DNA from: Fusobacterium sp. DD2 | GTDB taxonomy: Bacteria > Fusobacteriota > Fusobacteriia > Fusobacteriales > Fusobacteriaceae | Direction: 5' to 3' | Length of the DNA: 46,524 nucleotides | Assembly: GCF_018205345.1 (NCBI RefSeq) | Contig: NZ_JADRHM010000010.1 | Span: forward strand, 1-46,524 | Shown here: piece by piece, positions 8,230 through 30,525 of the stretch | Layout of the letters: every line of letters starts with the position of its first letter | How positions within the stretch are numbered: position 1 is the stretch's first letter | Notes under the pieces: generated by a model | Told to the model about the DNA's origin: nothing | The model's database searches: none | The model's input: only the letters and a program-made list of their open reading frames with translations | Position numbers and translations under genes: made by a program

Positions 8230-9453
8230 TTACCATCTGTTTGTGTTGCTGTCATCGCTTATATCAATAAAACGTTCGTTGTTTTTAAATGATTGTTTCT
8301 CATTTCCTTCCAGTCTCTTAAGGATAGCTCTGATTTCAGCTTTCTTCATATCCTCTTTGGATAACTTTTGAGTTTCCATCTCCTGTGGGACTCCTGACAT
8401 GGATTTTTCTTTTGATTTATCACTATTCATATCCTTATCAGGTTGTTGTTTTTCATTATTTTGTTGTTGATTTTGTTTATCTTGTTGCTGATTGTTCTTT
8501 TGATCCTGTTTATTGTTCTTTTGATTATCTTTATTATCCTTATTTTGTTGTTGATTTTGTTTATCTTGTTGCTGATTGTTCTTTTGATCCTGTTTATTGT
8601 TCTTTTGATTATCTTTATTATCCTTATTTTGCTGTTGATTTTGTTTATCCTGTTGTTGATTGTTATTTTGGCCTTGTTTATTGTCTTTTTGATTATCTTT
8701 ATTATCCTTATTTTGCTGTTGATTTTGTTTATCTTGTTGTTGGTTATTCTTTTGGTCCTGTTTATTTTCCTTCTGATTATCTTTGTTATCTTTATTTTGG
8801 TTTTGATCTTGTTTATCCTGTTGTTGGTTATTCTTTTGATCCTGTTTATTGTCTTTCTGATTTTCTTTGTTATCCTTATTTTGTTGTTGATCTTGTTTAT
8901 CTTGTTGTTGATTATTCTTTTGGTCTTGTTTGTTATCCTTCTGATTGTCTTTGTTATCTTTATTTTGCTGCTGATTTTGTTTATTCTGTTGTTGGTTATT
9001 CTTTTGGTCCTGTTTATTATCTTTGTTTTGCTCTTCATTAAGCATCTTAAGGACAATTTCGTAGTTTTTCTTAATATTTATATCTTCAGACTCCTTCATA
9101 CTCTCTTTATACTCTTCCAAAGCCTTAGTAAGAATTTCTTTCTTATCCTGACTCTTAGCAGAGGTATATACATAGGAATTTCCTTTTAGAAAACCATCTT
9201 TATATTTTGATTTTAAAAGTTCATCATACTTTTTTTCCTCGTAAAAAGACCTTAAAATATTCTTTTTCAATATATCAATATCTTTATCTTTTAAAATATG
9301 CTCATAAACTTTTCTGCTTTCATCAAATTTTTTATCTCTGAATTTTGAGTTTCCAGAGGAAATATTAAAATACAGTTTTGCATCTGGAATATTATTTAAA
9401 AAGAATGCTGAAGATACGATAAGTGCACCAATAGCTATAATCTTATTTCTCAT
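8230..9453 (-). CDS. BatC-like TPR protein with Gln/Asn/Lys/Asp repeat tract
   Basis: A 407-aa operon member in the position of batC/batE. It has one N-terminal transmembrane or signal segment (residues 5-20), then a short TPR-like helical region (about 28-138: SGNSKFRDKKFDESRKVYEH, ALEEYKESMKESEDINIKKN). Residues about 141-335 are a tandem 28-residue repeat made almost only of Q, N, K and D. The C-terminal tail (KAEIRAILKRLEGNEKQ) resembles the conserved end of BatC proteins. The ATG has AGAGGTGA upstream, and the gene overlaps batB by 11 nt. The low-complexity tract is probably disordered and periplasmic. No catalytic residues are visible. Confidence 0.85.
   Translation of the reverse strand: MRNKIIAIGALIVSSAFFLNNIPDAKLYFNISSGNSKFRDKKFDESRKVYEHILKDKDIDILKKNILRSFYEEKKYDELLKSKYKDGFLKGNSYVYTSAKSQDKKEILTKALEEYKESMKESEDINIKKNYEIVLKMLNEEQNKDNKQDQKNNQQQNKQNQQQNKDNKDNQKDNKQDQKNNQQQDKQDQQQNKDNKENQKDNKQDQKNNQQQDKQDQNQNKDNKDNQKENKQDQKNNQQQDKQNQQQNKDNKDNQKDNKQGQNNNQQQDKQNQQQNKDNKDNQKNNKQDQKNNQQQDKQNQQQNKDNKDNQKNNKQDQKNNQQQDKQNQQQNNEKQQPDKDMNSDKSKEKSMSGVPQEMETQKLSKEDMKKAEIRAILKRLEGNEKQSFKNNERFIDISDDSNTNRW
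8455..9030 (-). repeat. 84-bp in-frame tandem repeat inside the BatC-like gene
   Basis: The sequence recurs every 84 bp, encoding about six 28-residue units of the type QQDKQNQQQNKDNKD. The units from 8461-8544 and 8545-8628 are identical base for base, which indicates a recent duplication. The others differ by scattered substitutions. The unit is a multiple of three, so copy-number change would lengthen or shorten the tract without a frameshift. Confidence 0.92.
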
Positions 9454-23070: not shown

Positions 23071-23793
23071 TTATGCCCCTAAATAGGCTTTTTTAACATC
23101 TGGATTATGTAAAAGTTCTTTTGCTTTTCCTTCCATAGTGATTTTACCAGTTTCAATAACATAGGCATAGTCTGCAACTGAAAGTGCCATTTTAGCATTT
23201 TGTTCAACTAGTAAAATTGTAACTCCAGCCTCTTTAAGTCTTTTTATAACTCCAAATATCTCCTTTACAAAAAGAGGAGAAAGACCCATAGATGGTTCAT
23301 CTAAAATTAAAAGCTTAGGTCTGCTCATAAGAGCCCTTCCCATTGCAAGCATCTGTTGTTCCCCACCAGATAGTGTACCAGCCATCTGATTTTTTCTCTC
23401 TGACATTCTTGGGAAAACTTCGTAAAATTTAGCTCTATCTTTTTCCAGATTTTCAGGTGTATCATCTACTGTAAATGCTCCAAGTTTAAGATTATCTTTA
23501 ACTAATAGTTTTGCAAAAATTCTTCTTCCCTCTGGTACCTGAGCAATTCCTTTTTTGCAGATAAGATGTGATGGTGATTTAGTAATATCTTCTCCCTGAA
23601 ATCTTATCTTTCCTTTTTTAGATTGAATAAGTCCAGATATAGTCTGTAGAGTTGTAGTTTTCCCAGCACCATTTGCTCCTATTAAAGATACTACCTCTCC
23701 CTGTTTAACCTTTAATGAGATTCCTTTTAGAGCGTGAATATTATCATAATATACGTGTAAATCATCAATTTCTAACATATAATCTTTTTCCAT
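23071..23793 (-). CDS. livF: Branched-chain amino-acid ABC transporter, ATP-binding protein LivF
   Basis: One of two ATPase subunits of the Leu/Ile/Val importer, on the cytoplasmic face (240 aa). Walker A is GANGAGKTT (about 39-47), the signature is LSGGEQQML, and Walker B is LLILDEPSMGLSP. The short 240-aa form with VPEGRRIFAKLLVKDNL is typical of LivF as against LivG. It overlaps livG by one nucleotide (TAATG). It is the last gene of the operon, closed by a repeat copy. Confidence 0.95.
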   Translation of the reverse strand: MEKDYMLEIDDLHVYYDNIHALKGISLKVKQGEVVSLIGANGAGKTTTLQTISGLIQSKKGKIRFQGEDITKSPSHLICKKGIAQVPEGRRIFAKLLVKDNLKLGAFTVDDTPENLEKDRAKFYEVFPRMSERKNQMAGTLSGGEQQMLAMGRALMSRPKLLILDEPSMGLSPLFVKEIFGVIKRLKEAGVTILLVEQNAKMALSVADYAYVIETGKITMEGKAKELLHNPDVKKAYLGA

Positions 23794-24584
23794 TATTTAC
23801 TTTCCACCTCATCTTCATCATCTTTTCCCAGATAAGCAGTTACAACTGTTGGATTATTTACTACTTCCTGTGGGTCTCCCTGGGCAATTAAAGTCCCATG
23901 GTCTAAAACAAGTAATCTTTCGCAGATACCAAGTACAAGCTTCATATCATGCTCAATTAATAAAATTGCTATTCCAAATTTATCCCTTATAAGCTTTATA
24001 GTTTTCATAAGTTCATCAGTTTCTGTTGGGTTCATACCAGCTGCAGGTTCATCTAAAAGTAAAAGCTTTGGATTTGTTGCCATAGCTCTGGCTATTTCAA
24101 GTTTACGTTGTTGTCCATATGGAAGATTTCCAGCTGCGGTATTGGCAAATTTATCAAGGCCAAATATTTTAAGAAGCTCCATTGCTTTATCCTTTGCTAT
24201 TTTCTCCTCTTTCCAAAAACCAGGTAGTCTAAATGTCCCAGTAAAAATACCATATTTCATATTGAAGTTATTAGCTACCAATACATTTTCAAGTACAGTC
24301 ATATATTTAAATAGACGGATATTTTGGAAAGTTCTTGCAAGACCACTTTTAACCAGTTTATATGTAGGAGTCTTTTTTATCTCTTTTCCATTAAATATAT
24401 ATGTTCCAGATGTTGCAGAATAAACTCCAGTTAAAATATTAAATACAGTGGTCTTTCCTGCTCCATTTGGACCAATCAGTCCAACAAGCTCATTTTCTTT
24501 TATCTCAAGGTTAAAATCAGTTACAGCTTTTAAGGCTCCAAATGTAATTGAAATATCTTTAGCACTAAGTATTGTCTTACTCAT
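23793..24584 (-). CDS. livG: Branched-chain amino-acid ABC transporter, ATP-binding protein LivG
   Basis: Second ATPase subunit (263 aa). Walker A is GPNGAGKTT (38-46), LARTFQNIRLF follows, the atypical signature region LPYGQQRKLEIARA is that of LivG, and Walker B is LLLLDEPAAGMNP, also a LivG mark. It overlaps livM by 8 nt and livF by 1 nt, so translation is likely coupled. Confidence 0.95.
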   Translation of the reverse strand: MSKTILSAKDISITFGALKAVTDFNLEIKENELVGLIGPNGAGKTTVFNILTGVYSATSGTYIFNGKEIKKTPTYKLVKSGLARTFQNIRLFKYMTVLENVLVANNFNMKYGIFTGTFRLPGFWKEEKIAKDKAMELLKIFGLDKFANTAAGNLPYGQQRKLEIARAMATNPKLLLLDEPAAGMNPTETDELMKTIKLIRDKFGIAILLIEHDMKLVLGICERLLVLDHGTLIAQGDPQEVVNNPTVVTAYLGKDDEDEVESK

Positions 24585-25548
24585 CTGAAACCTCCTTTTT
24601 CTTTAAAAATCTGTTAACTATTTTAGAAATCTGAAATTCTTTACGACCAAGTAATCCTGTTGGTCTAAATATCATTGTAAGAATTAGAAGCAGTGAATAT
24701 ACAATCATACGATAGTCTGCAAAGCCTCTTAACACTTCAGGAAGTATTGTAAGAACAATTGCAGAAATGATTGAACCTGTAAAACTTCCCATTCCTCCAA
24801 GTACTACCATAACCAGAATATTGATTGAATAGTTATAGTCAAACTGTTTTGCACCTAAAATACCTAAGTTATGTGCATATATTCCACCAGCTACCCCAGC
24901 AAATATTGCAGACACTGTAAAGGCAAATGTTTTATAATAAGTTGTATTGATTCCTGAAGCTCCACTTGCAATTTCATCATCTCTAATAGCAAGAATAGCT
25001 CTACCATGTCTGCTGGTCATAAGTGAAAACATCATAATTACGCATACAACCATGATAATATAGATAATTCCAAAATTATTAAATCTAGGGATTTTTCTAA
25101 GTCCCTGTGCTCCACCTGTAAAGTGAAAATACTCAATTAAAACTCTTATAATCTCACCAAATGCCAAAGTTATAATAGCAAGATAGTCTCCGTAAAGTCT
25201 CAAAGCAGGGATACCGATAATGATACCAATTATTCCTGCAACTATACCACCAATTATAAGAGCTACAATATATCCAGGTAGCCCAGACATAAGACCAGAT
25301 TTTGCAAATAGTGCAGCTGCATAAGCTCCTACTGACATAAATCCAGCATGTCCAATTGTAATCTGTCCCAGACACCCTACTGTGATATTTAAGCTCACAG
25401 CTAAAATTATATTAATACAGATAAAAATCATAACAGTAGTTTGATATCTTGAAATAACCTTTGTACTGATTAAGGTTGTAAGAATAAAGTAACCAGCAAC
25501 TATAAATAAAAGAGTTAGGAAATAACTCCATTTCTTTGTCCTATCCAT
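24577..25548 (-). CDS. livM: Branched-chain amino-acid ABC transporter, permease LivM
   Basis: Membrane permease subunit (323 aa) with about nine hydrophobic helices. The motif GQITIGHAGFMSVGAYAAAL and the EAA-like loop (SRHGRAILAIRDDEIAS) that contacts the ATPase mark LivM. The ATG has GGGGGAG upstream. It follows livH by 9 bp. Confidence 0.94.
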   Translation of the reverse strand: MDRTKKWSYFLTLLFIVAGYFILTTLISTKVISRYQTTVMIFICINIILAVSLNITVGCLGQITIGHAGFMSVGAYAAALFAKSGLMSGLPGYIVALIIGGIVAGIIGIIIGIPALRLYGDYLAIITLAFGEIIRVLIEYFHFTGGAQGLRKIPRFNNFGIIYIIMVVCVIMMFSLMTSRHGRAILAIRDDEIASGASGINTTYYKTFAFTVSAIFAGVAGGIYAHNLGILGAKQFDYNYSINILVMVVLGGMGSFTGSIISAIVLTILPEVLRGFADYRMIVYSLLLILTMIFRPTGLLGRKEFQISKIVNRFLKKKEVSDE

Positions 25549-25557
25549 TTTCTCCCC

Positions 25558-26442
25558 CTATACTTTCTCTCTGATATTTTTTCCAAGTATTCCTGTTGGT
25601 TTTACAAGAAGCACGATTATAAGTATTGCAAATACAAATGCGTCAGCCAGTTGTGATGAGAGATAAGCTCTAGTTAAGCTCTCAACTATTCCAAGGATAA
25701 ATCCTCCTATAACTGCTCCTGGAAGTAATCCAATTCCTCCAAGTACTGCTGCAATAAAAGCTTTTATTCCAAGCATTGCACCCATTAAAGGTTCTACCTG
25801 AGGATATGCAGATACATATAGAACTGAAGCTATTGCTGCAAGTCCACTACCTATTGCAAATGTAAGCTGGATAGTATTGTTTACATTTATTCCAACCAGC
25901 ATTGCTGCTCCGTAATCTTCACTTGTTGCAAGCATTGCCTTACCATATTTAGTCTTCTTCATAAAGTACTGCAATCCAAATGAAAGAATAAGAGTCACTG
26001 CAATAGTAATAACAGTACCAAAGTTAAGATGAAGCTCTCCTATTTCTATAGGTGCCTGAGTAAATACCTTTGGAAAAGCTCTTGTATTTGGTGTAAAGAG
26101 TTTCATAAAGACATTTTCTAATAATAAACTTACTCCTATGGCTGTGATAAGATTAGATATTCTAGGTGAATTTCTAAGTGGTCTATAAGCCACTCTTTCT
26201 GTCAACATCCCTAATACAACACAGACTACTATTGAGGGAATAACTGTCAGCCATACGGGCAATCCCATTTTTGTAAATGTAGGTATGCAAAAGAGAGATA
26301 CATATGCTCCTACCATAATAATGTCCCCATGAGCAAAGTTAATAAGTTGAGCAATTCCATAAACCATCGTGTATCCCAAGGATACCAATGCATAAATACT
26401 TCCAATCTGTAAACCATTAATTATCTGTAATAAAAATTCCAT
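25558..26442 (-). CDS. livH: Branched-chain amino-acid ABC transporter, permease LivH
   Basis: Second permease (294 aa), hydrophobic throughout, with the family pattern QIGSIYALVSLGYTMVYGI, LINFAHGDIIM at the N-terminus and GMLGIKAFIAAVLGGIG near the end. The ribosome-binding site is AAAGGGG. It lies 56 bp after livJ, and a stable hairpin occupies that gap. Confidence 0.94.
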   Translation of the reverse strand: MEFLLQIINGLQIGSIYALVSLGYTMVYGIAQLINFAHGDIIMVGAYVSLFCIPTFTKMGLPVWLTVIPSIVVCVVLGMLTERVAYRPLRNSPRISNLITAIGVSLLLENVFMKLFTPNTRAFPKVFTQAPIEIGELHLNFGTVITIAVTLILSFGLQYFMKKTKYGKAMLATSEDYGAAMLVGINVNNTIQLTFAIGSGLAAIASVLYVSAYPQVEPLMGAMLGIKAFIAAVLGGIGLLPGAVIGGFILGIVESLTRAYLSSQLADAFVFAILIIVLLVKPTGILGKNIREKV

Positions 26443-26498: not shown

Positions 26499-27620
26499 TT
26501 ATTTAATTACAGTATCATATGTATATTTACCATTAACAATTTTCAATACAGTAACTGCTTTAATTGGGTTATTTTTATCGTCAAATTTTAGTTCTCCTGT
26601 TACTCCATTAAAGTCACTATTCTTAATTGCATCAATAACAGCTTGCTTATCAGTAGTGCCAGCTTTTTCAATTGCATTTTTAACTAGATATGCAGCATCG
26701 TATGAAAGAGCAGAGAAAGCTGATGGGTCTTCACCATATTTTGCTCTATAGGCTTTTAAGAAGTTTTGTACCTTTTCACTTTTATCATCTAATGAATAAT
26801 GGTTAGTAAAATAACTTCCTTCAATTGCTCCATATGCTGAACTGTCAAGTGCTTTTGCTACTCCGTCCCATCCATCAGGACCAATAAATTGAGATTTGAT
26901 TCCAACTTCTCTTGCCTGTGTTGTAATTAGAGCTGCCTGTTCATAGTAGTCTGGAATTAGTAAAACATCAGGATTTGTACTTGCTATTTTGGTTAGCTGA
27001 GCTCTGAAGTCTTTATCTCCCTCTCCATATCCCTCTTTAGCAACAACTTTAAGTCCTAACTTTCCAGCCTCTTCGATAAATGATTTAGCAACTCCATCAG
27101 AATAGTCACTAGAGTTATTAACAATAACAGCTACTGTTTTAGCATTAAGTTTTTCTTTAGCAAGTTTTGCTAGAATTACTCCTTGATATGGGTCAGTAAA
27201 ACATACACGGAATACATTTGGTCCAGCCTCAGTAATATTAAACTGTGTCCCTGTAGGAGTTACCATTGGCATATTGTCATCAGCAGCAATTTCAGCAACT
27301 GCAAGAGATGGTTTTGATGTAATATCTCCAACTAATGCAACAATATCATCATCTACAAGTTTATTATATGCAGTTACAGCTTCTGTAGAATCTCCCTTTT
27401 CATCAAGAAGAATAAATTCAACAGGTTTTCCTAAAATTCCACCATTTTTATTAATCTCTTCAAAAGCAAGTTTAGAACCATTTGTAGCAGATACCCCATA
27501 TATAGCTACAGGTCCAGTTAAAGGTCCCAATCCACCAATTTTGATTACATCTTCTTTCCCATATACAAGAGACGATAATAAAAATGTTGTTCCTAAAAGT
27601 GTTAAATTAAATCTGTTCAT
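26499..27620 (-). CDS. livJ: Branched-chain amino-acid-binding periplasmic protein (LivJ/LivK family)
   Basis: Substrate-binding protein (373 aa). A Sec signal peptide (about 1-22, ending VYG) without a lipobox predicts a soluble periplasmic protein. KIGGLGPLTGPVAIYG opens the mature domain, as in LivJ/LivK. AVIVNNSSDYSDGVAKSF and ALSYDAAYLVKNAIEKAG are typical type I binding-protein segments. The ribosome-binding site is AAAGGGGG. It is the first gene of livJHMGF and lies behind a leader ORF and terminator. I saw no separate promoter between that terminator and the gene. Confidence 0.95.
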   Translation of the reverse strand: MNRFNLTLLGTTFLLSSLVYGKEDVIKIGGLGPLTGPVAIYGVSATNGSKLAFEEINKNGGILGKPVEFILLDEKGDSTEAVTAYNKLVDDDIVALVGDITSKPSLAVAEIAADDNMPMVTPTGTQFNITEAGPNVFRVCFTDPYQGVILAKLAKEKLNAKTVAVIVNNSSDYSDGVAKSFIEEAGKLGLKVVAKEGYGEGDKDFRAQLTKIASTNPDVLLIPDYYEQAALITTQAREVGIKSQFIGPDGWDGVAKALDSSAYGAIEGSYFTNHYSLDDKSEKVQNFLKAYRAKYGEDPSAFSALSYDAAYLVKNAIEKAGTTDKQAVIDAIKNSDFNGVTGELKFDDKNNPIKAVTVLKIVNGKYTYDTVIK

Positions 27621-27702: not shown

Positions 27703-27727
27703 AAAAAAACAGCCTAGTCAGGCTGTT
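27703..27727 (-). terminator. Intrinsic terminator in the liv leader (attenuator)
   Basis: On the minus strand, AACAGCCT-GACT-AGGCTGTT is followed by five more T residues: an 8-bp GC-containing stem with a 4-nt loop. It lies 76-83 nt upstream of livJ and points into it. Nothing between it and livJ needs ending. It ends the transcript that carries the leader ORF, which fits a conditional terminator. Confidence 0.85.
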
Positions 27728-27801
27728 ATTTTCTATACTTATACTCTATCTATACACTCTTTTATATATAGTTATACAAGGATATATTTACACTACCTAA
27801 C
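27703..27801 (-). promoter_or_regulatory. Predicted antiterminator/terminator switch of the liv leader
   Basis: GUUAGGUAGU (27792-27801), covering the last sense codons and stop of the leader ORF, can pair with ACAGCCUGAC (27717-27726), the 5' arm plus loop of the terminator. Seven consecutive pairs (two G-U) are followed by one mismatch and two more pairs. A ribosome at the stop codon would cover this segment and leave the terminator free to form. A ribosome stalled at the Ile/Leu/Val codons would leave it exposed. This is inferred from base pairing only. Confidence 0.7.
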
Positions 27802-27891
27802 ATAATTTTTGGCATATGAAATTGTGCTCATAATTATATGTATGAGTATAATAAAGCATATGACAAGTATTATGTAGTTATGTGCTAACAT
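27793..27891 (-). CDS. Leader peptide rich in Ile/Leu/Val, upstream of livJHMGF
   Basis: A 32-residue ORF with nine Ile, three Leu and two Val (14 of 32). The densest part, residues 7-20, reads IILVICFIILIHII. Six of the nine Ile codons are ATA, and CTC and GTC also occur. The ATG has AGGGGG 8 nt upstream, the same type of site used by livJ itself. A promoter lies about 45 nt upstream and an intrinsic terminator 66 nt downstream. This is the layout of attenuator leader peptides such as that of ilvGMEDA. A small hydrophobic membrane peptide (for example a type I toxin) is the main alternative; I saw no convincing antisense promoter. Confidence 0.75.
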   Translation of the reverse strand: MLAHNYIILVICFIILIHIIMSTISYAKNYVR

Positions 27892-27936
27892 ATCTTTTTC
27901 CCCCTATATTTTATTAGTTTTATATTTGTTAAAGAG

Positions 27937-27965
27937 AGTATAACTCTATCTTTTTTAAATTGCAA
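27937..27965 (-). promoter_or_regulatory. Sigma-70-type promoter of the liv leader and operon
   Basis: On the minus strand, TTGCAA (27960-27965), 17 bp, TATACT (27937-27942). Transcription should start near 27930, about 40 nt before the leader ORF, giving a leader of about 230 nt up to the terminator. Confidence 0.75.
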
Positions 27966-28045: not shown

Positions 28046-28540
28046 CTAATTAAAAAGGCTTTCTATTTTAGATTTTAATCCATCTACATCAACTACGTGT
28101 TGTTCTATATTAACAAGCTCACCATTTTGATATTTTTTAGTAATTAAAAGCTCGTTCTTATCATTATATATATTCCAATCTCCATCTTTAACTCCATTTA
28201 CATAGCTTCCTTTATATGCAACAGTTCCGTTAGAATAGTATTTTACATATTCACCAACAGGTACTCCCATATCATATGTTGCTTTCTCTTTTATCTGTCC
28301 ATTGGAATAATAACTTGCCTGTTCTCCATTAAATTTTCCATCTTTATATATTTCAGAAACTTCTATTTGACCATTTTCATATTTTCCAATCATTTTACCA
28401 GAAAATGGTTTTTCTCCATTAACTACATAGACAATTCCATTTCTATCTTGTTTTTGAGATATATCTACCTCTTTATCAAATGGCGAATTACAAGCTGTAA
28501 TTATAGATGTAATTAAAACTGCTAATAGTATTTTTTTCAT
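28046..28540 (-). CDS. YwqK-repeat lipoprotein
   Basis: A 164-aa lipoprotein (lipobox ITAC, about Cys17) followed by about five MORN-like/YwqK repeats: KPFSGKMIGKYENGQIE, FNGEQASYYSNGQIKEKA, VGEYVKYYSNGTVAYKG, KDGDWNIYNDKNELL. Proteins with such repeats are often labelled YwqK-family antitoxins, but no toxin gene is visible here. The anchored form suggests an envelope role. The start was set at 28540, where GGAGGGAG lies upstream; an upstream in-frame ATG has none. A larger paralogue without a signal peptide lies at about 32.1 kb. Confidence 0.82.
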   Translation of the reverse strand: MKKILLAVLITSIITACNSPFDKEVDISQKQDRNGIVYVVNGEKPFSGKMIGKYENGQIEVSEIYKDGKFNGEQASYYSNGQIKEKATYDMGVPVGEYVKYYSNGTVAYKGSYVNGVKDGDWNIYNDKNELLITKKYQNGELVNIEQHVVDVDGLKSKIESLFN

Positions 28541-28653
28541 TTTCTCCCTCCAATTTATTTTGTATTTCACTTATATTATATTACATATTTTTCCTTAAAA
28601 GTAAAATTTTTAATAAATAATACCAATTAAGTCAGAAAAAAACAATATAAAAG

Positions 28654-28997: not shown

Positions 28998-30525
28998 ATG
29001 AAAAAACTTTTTTTAGCATTTTTTGTAGTAGCCTGTGGGCTAATAGCAGGCTGTGGTAAAGACAATGAAGCAGCAAAGGACACTTCAGTGAAAAAGGAGA
29101 AAGTAGTTGTAGTTTCACAAGGTTCAAAACCTAAAAGTTTGGATCCTGCAATGTACAATGAAATACCTGCTCTTACTATTACAAGACAGATTTTTAATAC
29201 ATTGCTTAGAATTGATGACAATGGAAATATAGTTCCAGAACTTGCTGAATCATATGAGTATTGTAACACCAACTGAACTTGTAATCAAACTTCGAAAAGG
29301 TGTTAAATTCCATAATGGAGATATACTTACAGCAAAAGATGTGGCTTTCAGCATTAACAGAATGTTAAACAAACAGGCAAGTAAAATAATGATCAATGTT
29401 GTTAAAGATGTAGTTATTGTAGATGATAATACTGTTAAGTTAATCTTATCACAACCATCTTCACAACTTTTATTTGCTCTTGCACATCCATTGACATCAA
29501 TCTTAAATGAGAGAGATACTGTTGCAAATAAAGATGATGTTGCTTCTCATCCAATTGGAACAGGACCTTATAAATTTGTAGATTGGGGAAGTGGAGAGAA
29601 GATTGTACTTGTAGCATTTGATGACTATTTTGAAGGAAAGCCTAAAATTGATAAACTTATATATAGAGCTATAAGTGAAAACACAAGTAGATTGGCTGCC
29701 CTAGAAACAGGTGAAATAGACATAGCTTATAATGTGGCACCAATTGATGCTGATACTATAAAAAATAATAAAAATTTAGTATTAATTTCAAAACCATCAA
29801 CATCAACAGAGTATATTACATTTAATAATACAAAAGCACCTTTTAATAATAAAGATTTCAGACTTGCTGTAAACTATGCAATAGACAAACAGGGAATAGC
29901 TGATTCTATATTCATGGGAAAAGCTCATACAGCAAATTCTATTGTAAATCCAAATGTTTTCGGCTATAATAAAGATGTTGCAGGTTATCCATATAATGTT
30001 TCTCTAGCAAAGGAATATCTAGAAAAATCTGGAATTAAAAATCCTAAATTTACCTTATTTGTAAATGACAGTCCAATAAGACTTCAAATTGCTCAAATTA
30101 TTCAAGCAAATTTAAAAGACATAGGAATAGATATGAATATTGAAACTCTTGAATGGGGAACATACCTTCAAAAAACAGCTCAAGGAGAGCATCAAGCACT
30201 TTTAGGAGGATGGGTATCTGGAACTTCAGATGCAGATATAGTTTTATATCCATTATTACACAGTAGTTCTCATGGTGGAGCAGGAAATAGAGCCTTTTAT
30301 ACAAATAAAGAGCTAGATAAAATAATTGAAGCAGCTCGTGAAACATCAAATGTTGAAGATAGAAAACAACTATTTATGAAAGCACAGGAAATTCTTCAAG
30401 ATGATGCACCTTTAGGAATTTTACTTTATAAAAATGAAAATATAGGGTACAATAAAAATATAAAAGGATTTGAATTCAGTCCAACAATGATGCATGTACT
30501 GAAAAACTTAGATAAGCAACAATAG
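28998..30525 (+). pseudogene. Peptide-binding lipoprotein (ABC solute-binding family 5) with one-base frameshift
   Basis: Two overlapping frames make one DppA/OppA-type binding protein of about 508 aa. The first frame (28998-29276) has a lipoprotein signal (lipobox IAGC) and KPKSLDPAMYNE, and reaches ELAESYEY. The second frame carries TPTELVIKLRKGVKFHNGD and the rest of the domain to 30525. One extra T at 29261/29262 breaks the frame: removing it gives ESYEYVTPTEL, which restores the family sequence. The site is only TT, so homopolymer slippage is not obvious. It is either a recent inactivating mutation or a sequencing error. It lies beside an M42 aminopeptidase, which suits peptide use. Confidence 0.85.

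What the first reader, a model, noticed from the sequence alone, without database searches (positions are those of the whole stretch)
27703..27965. Leader-peptide attenuator predicted to control branched-chain amino-acid import (livJHMGF)
Seen in the sequence, minus strand: promoter TTGCAA-17-TATACT; ribosome-binding site AGGGGG; a 32-codon ORF (27793-27891) with 14 Ile/Leu/Val residues, packed at residues 7-20 (IILVICFIILIHII), with six ATA Ile codons; and an intrinsic terminator (27703-27727) pointing at livJ with no gene in between. The ORF's final codons GUUAGGUAGU can pair with ACAGCCUGAC, the terminator's 5' arm and loop, so the two folds exclude each other, and the antiterminator strand spans the leader stop codon. 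Known: ilvGMEDA-type attenuators use ribosome stalling at scarce-amino-acid codons. Inference: in Ile/Leu/Val shortage the ribosome stalls, the antiterminator forms, and the importer is made. A transport operon with its own amino-acid-counting leader in this phylum would be new to me.
Basis: partly seen in the sequence, partly recalled or inferred. Interest (0 to 1): 0.9.

Follow-up and report, generated by a model that had tools for sequence, protein, structure and literature searches.

The report
Codon-counting switch controlling amino-acid importers
A short leader gene in front of this bacterium's isoleucine/leucine/valine importer looks like a switch that lets the importer be made only when those amino acids run short, and related switches, re-coded for other amino acids, sit in front of at least nine kinds of nutrient operons across the Fusobacterium family.

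Summary
The leader lies upstream of livJ in 12 of 12 genomes of the genus. About 65 related leaders occur in 25 of 61 Fusobacteriaceae genomes (5 of 14 genera), in front of livJ, ilvE, ilvD, leuA, liv-SBP+trpS, peptide-binding protein+M20 amidohydrolase, BASS transporter+Fe-ADH, a LctP-like permease and others. The codon run fits the target where the target is known: Ile/Val/Leu for liv, ilvE and ilvD; Leu for leuA and a second livJ; a conserved Trp codon before trpS; a Phe/Tyr run (YFYYFYYFF) before one peptide-uptake operon. Three mutually exclusive helices (1:2, antiterminator 2:3, terminator 3:4) each covary. One strand-2 base changes together with both of its alternative partners in three unrelated elements. 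Diverged leaders keep 2:3 pairing with wholly different sequence (CUUUAGAUUG/CAAUCUAAAG). In folding calculations a ribosome over the first ~13 codons frees the antiterminator. No Rfam family and no published description was found in the papers searched. Translation, stalling and read-through are inferred, not shown. New variant of a known kind: a shared, re-coded attenuator scaffold in lineages with almost no T-boxes.

The parts
27937..27965 (-). promoter of the leader transcript, TTGCAA-17-TATACT
   Evidence: same layout upstream of 37 of 47 related leaders against 0.5 expected in shuffles
27900..27905 (-). ribosome-binding site AGGGGG of the leader ORF
27793..27891 (-). leader ORF, 32 codons, with control run IILVICFIILIHII (codons 7-20)
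   Evidence: homologues
27857..27883 (-). strand 1 (5' part of the ORF); pairs with strand 2 and is covered by a ribosome stalled at the control codons
27791..27818 (-). strand 2 (3' end of the ORF, core GUUAGG at 27796-27801); pairs with strand 1 or strand 3
27717..27723 (-). strand 3, GCCUGAC in the terminator 5' arm and loop; antiterminator partner of strand 2
27703..27727 (-). intrinsic terminator (strands 3:4, AACAGCC UGACUA GGCUGUU plus T-run)
26499..27620 (-). livJ-like substrate-binding protein, first controlled gene
   Evidence: Peripla_BP_6; PRK15404 similarity below its cut-off
25558..26442 (-). livH, permease
   Evidence: by position and sequence, not searched separately
24577..25548 (-). 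livM, permease
   Evidence: by position and sequence, not searched separately
23793..24584 (-). livG, ATPase
   Evidence: by position and sequence, not searched separately
23071..23793 (-). livF, ATPase
   Evidence: by position and sequence, not searched separately

Best explanation
A ribosome-mediated transcription attenuator. RNA polymerase starts at 27937-27965 and transcribes the leader. A ribosome translates the 32-codon ORF. With ample charged tRNA-Ile/Val/Leu it passes the run, strand 1 pairs with strand 2 (or the ribosome covers strand 2), the terminator 3:4 forms, and transcription stops near 27703. When these tRNAs are uncharged the ribosome stalls in the run over strand 1, strand 2 is free and pairs with strand 3 before strand 4 is made, the terminator is pre-empted, and livJHMGF is transcribed. 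The same scaffold, re-coded for other amino acids, controls other amino-acid uptake and metabolism operons in the family. Shown by sequence and comparison: the parts, their conservation, the exclusive covarying helices and the match of codons to targets. Inferred: translation, stalling, kinetic competition and the physiological response.
For: Leader upstream of livJ in 12 of 12 genus genomes and in second-genus genomes. Control run re-coded to fit the target: ILV for liv/ilvE/ilvD, Leu run for leuA and a second livJ, one Trp codon for trpS, Phe/Tyr run for an Opp+M20 operon. Covariation: 1:2 has 6 pairs and 12 cells changed on both sides, 2:3 has 2 pairs and 5 cells, 3:4 has 3 pairs and 19 cells. 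Strand-2 G>A together with strand-1 C>U and strand-3 C>U in L032, L088 and L106. Own strands pair better than swapped: 0 of 5000 permutations reach it for 1:2 and 2:3, for all 65, and for 13 diverged elements alone. Folding with a ribosome footprint: 2:3 averages 0.4 pairs with no ribosome, 3.4-6.4 with a ribosome at codons 1-11, under 0.6 at codons 28-44. One-base indels shift the frame after the run while strand 2 is kept (L049 vs L050; L077 vs L092). The stop codon is never closer than 31 nt to the terminator.
Against: At equilibrium the finished terminator beats 2:3 in most elements, including this one, so the model needs kinetic trapping. No consensus structure came from an unguided alignment; strand 1 had to be anchored by sequence. 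Codon-position bias is weak (1074:969:1310). The Trp leaders have one Trp codon each, which is not significant by composition. Permutation tests ignore phylogeny. No expression data.
Confidence: 0.92

Rival explanations
1. Small hydrophobic membrane peptide of a type I toxin-antitoxin pair, with a structured mRNA and its own terminator.
For: Hydrophobic 32-aa peptide with long mRNA hairpin; several copies per genome.
Against: Copies sit at the heads of amino-acid operons, facing them. The peptide changes to Leu, Trp-containing or Phe/Tyr forms. The C-terminus is frame-shifted between relatives. Ordinary toxin models do not predict strand 2 to terminator covariation. No phage or Pfam match. Promoter-like sites on the other strand are no more than chance.
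Confidence: 0.02
2. The terminator responds to another factor (a metabolite bound by the hairpin, a protein, or an arrest peptide) and the codon run is incidental.
For: Strand 1 and 2 sequences are more conserved than attenuation strictly needs, e.g. FVIC-type words in the liv, opp1 and ilvE leaders.
Against: The run changes amino acid to suit the downstream operon while the scaffold stays. The conserved words are explained by 1:2 pairing. No Rfam riboswitch or T-box.
Confidence: 0.05
3. Constitutive read-through terminator with a non-functional or transcript-stabilising short ORF.
For: At equilibrium the terminator dominates; no expression data.
Against: Conservation over two genera, triple covariation and codon matching would have no cause.
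Confidence: 0.02

Closest known systems
ilvGMEDA / leuABCD leader-peptide attenuators of enterobacteria (from general knowledge)
   Same: Leader ORF with I/L/V run, three exclusive helices, intrinsic terminator, ribosome as sensor.
   Different: Here first an importer operon, in Fusobacteriaceae, with a 6-8 bp antiterminator drawn from the end of the ORF and the terminator loop, and a scaffold shared with other operons.
S. aureus ilv leucine-rich attenuator peptide (PMC5794164) and C. glutamicum ilvBNC attenuator (PMC11857589)
   Same: BCAA leader peptides outside Proteobacteria (from titles and abstracts).
   Different: Single biosynthetic operons; no reuse with other codons in front of transporters known to me.
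T-box riboswitches (RF00230; PMC2494555)
   Same: One scaffold reused across operons, including transporters, with a swapped amino-acid specifier.
   Different: Senses the ribosome on a leader ORF, not tRNA directly; no T-box match at these loci; T-boxes nearly absent in the genera that carry the leader.
uORFC motifs such as the cysS leader (PMC8632094) and Firmicutes His leaders (PMC2965389)
   Same: Leader-peptide attenuators found by bioinformatics.
   Different: Each is tied to one gene or amino acid; none of the passages read describes one in Fusobacteria.

Membership tests
Ribosome-mediated (trp/ilv-type) transcription attenuator | Short ORF with ribosome-binding site between promoter and first gene | tested here: met
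Ribosome-mediated (trp/ilv-type) transcription attenuator | Run of codons for an amino acid related to the controlled genes | tested here: met
   for Trp only a single conserved codon
Ribosome-mediated (trp/ilv-type) transcription attenuator | Intrinsic terminator before the first gene | tested here: met
Ribosome-mediated (trp/ilv-type) transcription attenuator | Mutually exclusive 1:2, 2:3 and 3:4 helices supported by covariation | tested here: met
Ribosome-mediated (trp/ilv-type) transcription attenuator | Ribosome at the control codons frees the antiterminator strand | tested here: met
   in silico only, before the terminator 3' arm is made
Ribosome-mediated (trp/ilv-type) transcription attenuator | Leader ORF is translated | tested here: inconclusive
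   weak third-position excess; codon-sized indel before the run, frame-breaking indels after it
Ribosome-mediated (trp/ilv-type) transcription attenuator | Read-through rises when the amino acid is scarce | not testable with these tools
   needs RNA data
T-box riboswitch | Match to the T-box covariance model | tested here: not met
   no match in the window nor in the window's genome
Type I toxin-antitoxin | Conserved toxic peptide sequence | tested here: not met
   run re-coded, C-terminus frame-shifted
Type I toxin-antitoxin | Antisense RNA over the gene | tested here: inconclusive
   promoter-like sites on the other strand no more than chance; transcripts not testable

The most novel reading that the evidence does not exclude
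Fusobacteriaceae use one duplicated attenuator scaffold as a general amino-acid-shortage sensor, a ribosome-based counterpart of the T-box: the same strand-2/terminator cassette has spread to nine or more operon kinds and been re-coded for Ile/Val, Leu, Trp and Phe/Tyr, mainly to control import and peptide scavenging, in lineages that have almost no T-boxes.
Probability: 0.7. Interest if true: 0.78.

Novelty: new variant of a known kind. Interest (0 to 1): 0.7.

Why it matters
No leader-peptide attenuation in Fusobacteria was found in the papers searched, and the F. nucleatum transcript map paper checked does not mention it. The family gives a direct, codon-readable prediction of which amino acid each transporter or peptide-uptake operon serves, in gut and oral bacteria that live on amino acids. 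It also gives a natural series of one scaffold re-coded for several amino acids, with triple covariation, which makes the rules of attenuator evolution testable.

Tried and rejected
Rfam scan: nothing. Phage collection and Pfam for the peptide: nothing. RNAalifold on a plain MAFFT alignment gave no pairs because strand 1 is misaligned; replaced by sequence-anchored blocks. The resulting sequence-only model was still useful and led to 17 further candidate loci. First regex attempt failed through a pattern error. Pattern hits that are not leaders: tRNA-cluster terminators (L073/L098), coding sequence or ordinary gene ends (L074, L100, L104), terminators of cold-shock-like genes (L117, L121). Order-wide scan outside the family: hits about as frequent as the reversed-pattern control. 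Type I toxin, riboswitch and T-box readings rejected as above.

Full report
What is there. On the minus strand, between a MORN-repeat lipoprotein gene and livJ, the window carries a promoter, a ribosome-binding site, a 32-codon ORF with 14 Ile/Leu/Val residues and an intrinsic terminator facing livJ, exactly as described. The leader is much more structured than shuffled sequence (z = -4.9). Rfam has no match.

Conservation at livJ. A DNA search of the 12 genomes of the genus found matches in all, and in each the main livJ gene carries the leader. In a second genus (g5) the four genomes with a close livJ homologue carry it too; livJ homologues of genera g4, g6, g8 and others do not. Peptides vary (MLMFNVIIFVICIILLIQIDMSLISYTKNYVR, MFILNIISFVICIIIINVIQSSAKISYVNDCVR) but keep the I/L/V run.

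A family of leaders. The same search hit other loci, and the terminator word found more: a pattern scan gave 48 sites in the genus against 8 for the reversed pattern. With the family and order scans and a sequence model, 65 leaders were collected, in genera g1 (12 of 12 genomes), g5 (7 of 7), g12 (3 of 3), g4 (2 of 3) and g3 (1 of 12). Downstream genes: livJ; ilvE (over the NCBIfam cut-off); ilvD (over); leuA (over); a liv-type binding protein followed by trpS (over); a family-5 peptide-binding protein with M20 amidohydrolase (over); a BASS-family transporter with an iron-ADH-like protein; a LctP-family permease; an unassigned membrane protein with the same ADH-like protein; and, more weakly, a YheO-like regulator with a 2-oxoacid oxidoreductase subunit. 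The window's own genome has a second copy, G000:C74, before the BASS transporter (L002).

Codons fit the targets. Codons 3-22 hold more target residues than stop-free shuffles in most leaders: ilvD leader MFISTNLVIINILLILVIIILVIISSFLV has 16 ILV against 8.1; leuA leaders such as NHLLLNLLILALLLLS have 10 and 9 Leu against 4.1 and 3.4; a second livJ has MLLLLNLLLLLSLLLFML (12 Leu against 5.3); a peptide-uptake operon has FVYFYYFYYFFY (12 Phe/Tyr in the window of codons, against 6.6). The trpS leaders MYSANICWTTVYG and MFSSNICWTTAYV have one Trp at the same place in four genomes, where Trp is 0.4% of window codons; by composition alone one Trp is not significant. It lies directly after strand 1, so a ribosome waiting there covers strand 1. 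For the transporter and peptide operons the substrate is not independently known, so for them the codons are a prediction.

Three exclusive helices. Strand 1 (early ORF), strand 2 (ORF end, typically AUUAUGUUAGG), strand 3 (terminator 5' arm and loop, GCCUAAC) and strand 4. On 38 distinct elements, sequence-anchored, 1:2 is 84% paired with 12 cells changed on both sides, 2:3 is 88% with 5, and 3:4 is 98% with 19; sliding the partner by one to three columns drops pairing to 5-57%. In L032 (liv), L088 (BASS) and L106 (Opp, another genus) the strand-2 G is A and both of its alternative partners changed C to U. Diverged leaders keep 2:3 with new sequence: GUUAAG/CUUAAC, GCUAAG/CUUGGC, UUCUAAG/CUUAGAA, CUUUAGAUUG/CAAUCUAAAG. 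Own strands pair better than swapped ones in 5000 of 5000 permutations. These permutations ignore relatedness, so the independent compensated changes are the stronger argument.

Reading frame. Before the run an indel is codon-sized (L032 lacks one Ile codon relative to L036). After it, single-base indels shift the frame (L049 against L050; L077 against L092), while the strand-2 word stays. The ilvE leaders read strand 2 in another frame. The peptide end is therefore not what is conserved; the RNA is. Third-position excess is weak.

Mechanism by computation. Folding each transcript up to the terminator loop, 2:3 is nearly absent without a ribosome (0.43 pairs on average) because 1:2 forms. A ribosome footprint at codons 1-11 gives on average 3.4-6.4 pairs, and at codons 28-44 fewer than 0.6. 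Once the terminator 3' arm is present the terminator wins at equilibrium in most elements, so antitermination must be kinetic. The stop codon lies 31-131 nt before the terminator, so a ribosome at the stop does not cover it.

Compared with what is known. It works like the ilv/leu/trp attenuators. The features testable by sequence are met; translation and response are untested. Leader-peptide attenuators for BCAA are known in Proteobacteria (general knowledge), S. aureus (PMC5794164) and Corynebacterium (PMC11857589). A 2010 survey (PMC2965389) knew leader peptides only in Proteobacteria and Actinobacteria and added Firmicutes. The F. nucleatum transcript map paper (PMC11005410) has no mention of attenuation or leader peptides. 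Eight literature searches found no description for Fusobacteria, within an open-access library only. T-boxes are almost absent from the genera carrying the leader (g1 1 of 12, g5 1 of 7, g3, g4 and g12 none) and occur in g7-g10, g13 and g14.

Limits. Common descent of the BCAA leaders is clear from sequence; for the Trp, Phe/Tyr and Leu leaders, shared strand and terminator words suggest it but do not prove it. No expression data were available.

Noticed in passing
28998-30525 (+): Family-5 peptide-binding protein gene split by a frameshift near 29250: ORF 28998-29276 with a lipoprotein signal, then 29242-30525 in another frame. Pseudogene or assembly error.
   Followed up: partly
28046-28570 (-): MORN-repeat lipoprotein gene directly upstream of the leader; a relative sits at the same place in most other genomes of the genus looked at, so the leader-livJ neighbourhood is old.
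   Followed up: partly
8230-9453 (-): Protein with tandem Q/N/D/K-rich repeats whose alternative frames are open for over 200 codons on both strands.
   Followed up: no
27728-27792: Spacer between strand 2 and the terminator folds into its own AU-rich hairpin, which may bring strands 2 and 3 together.
   Followed up: no
L204, L205: Ile/Leu leader before a lactate-permease-family gene; its 2:3 pairing is weaker with its own terminator than with most others, so possibly decayed or differently built.
   Followed up: partly
L207, L209 (G031, G029): Leader with many Met and Leu codons (MLLNLMMILMLLMLLL) before an unassigned membrane protein with no Pfam or NCBIfam match and an Fe-ADH-like gene; possible Met/Leu sensing.
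   Followed up: partly
L199 (G035:C60): Liv-type leader no longer followed by livJ but by a MATE-like gene some 400 nt away: an orphaned leader.
   Followed up: no
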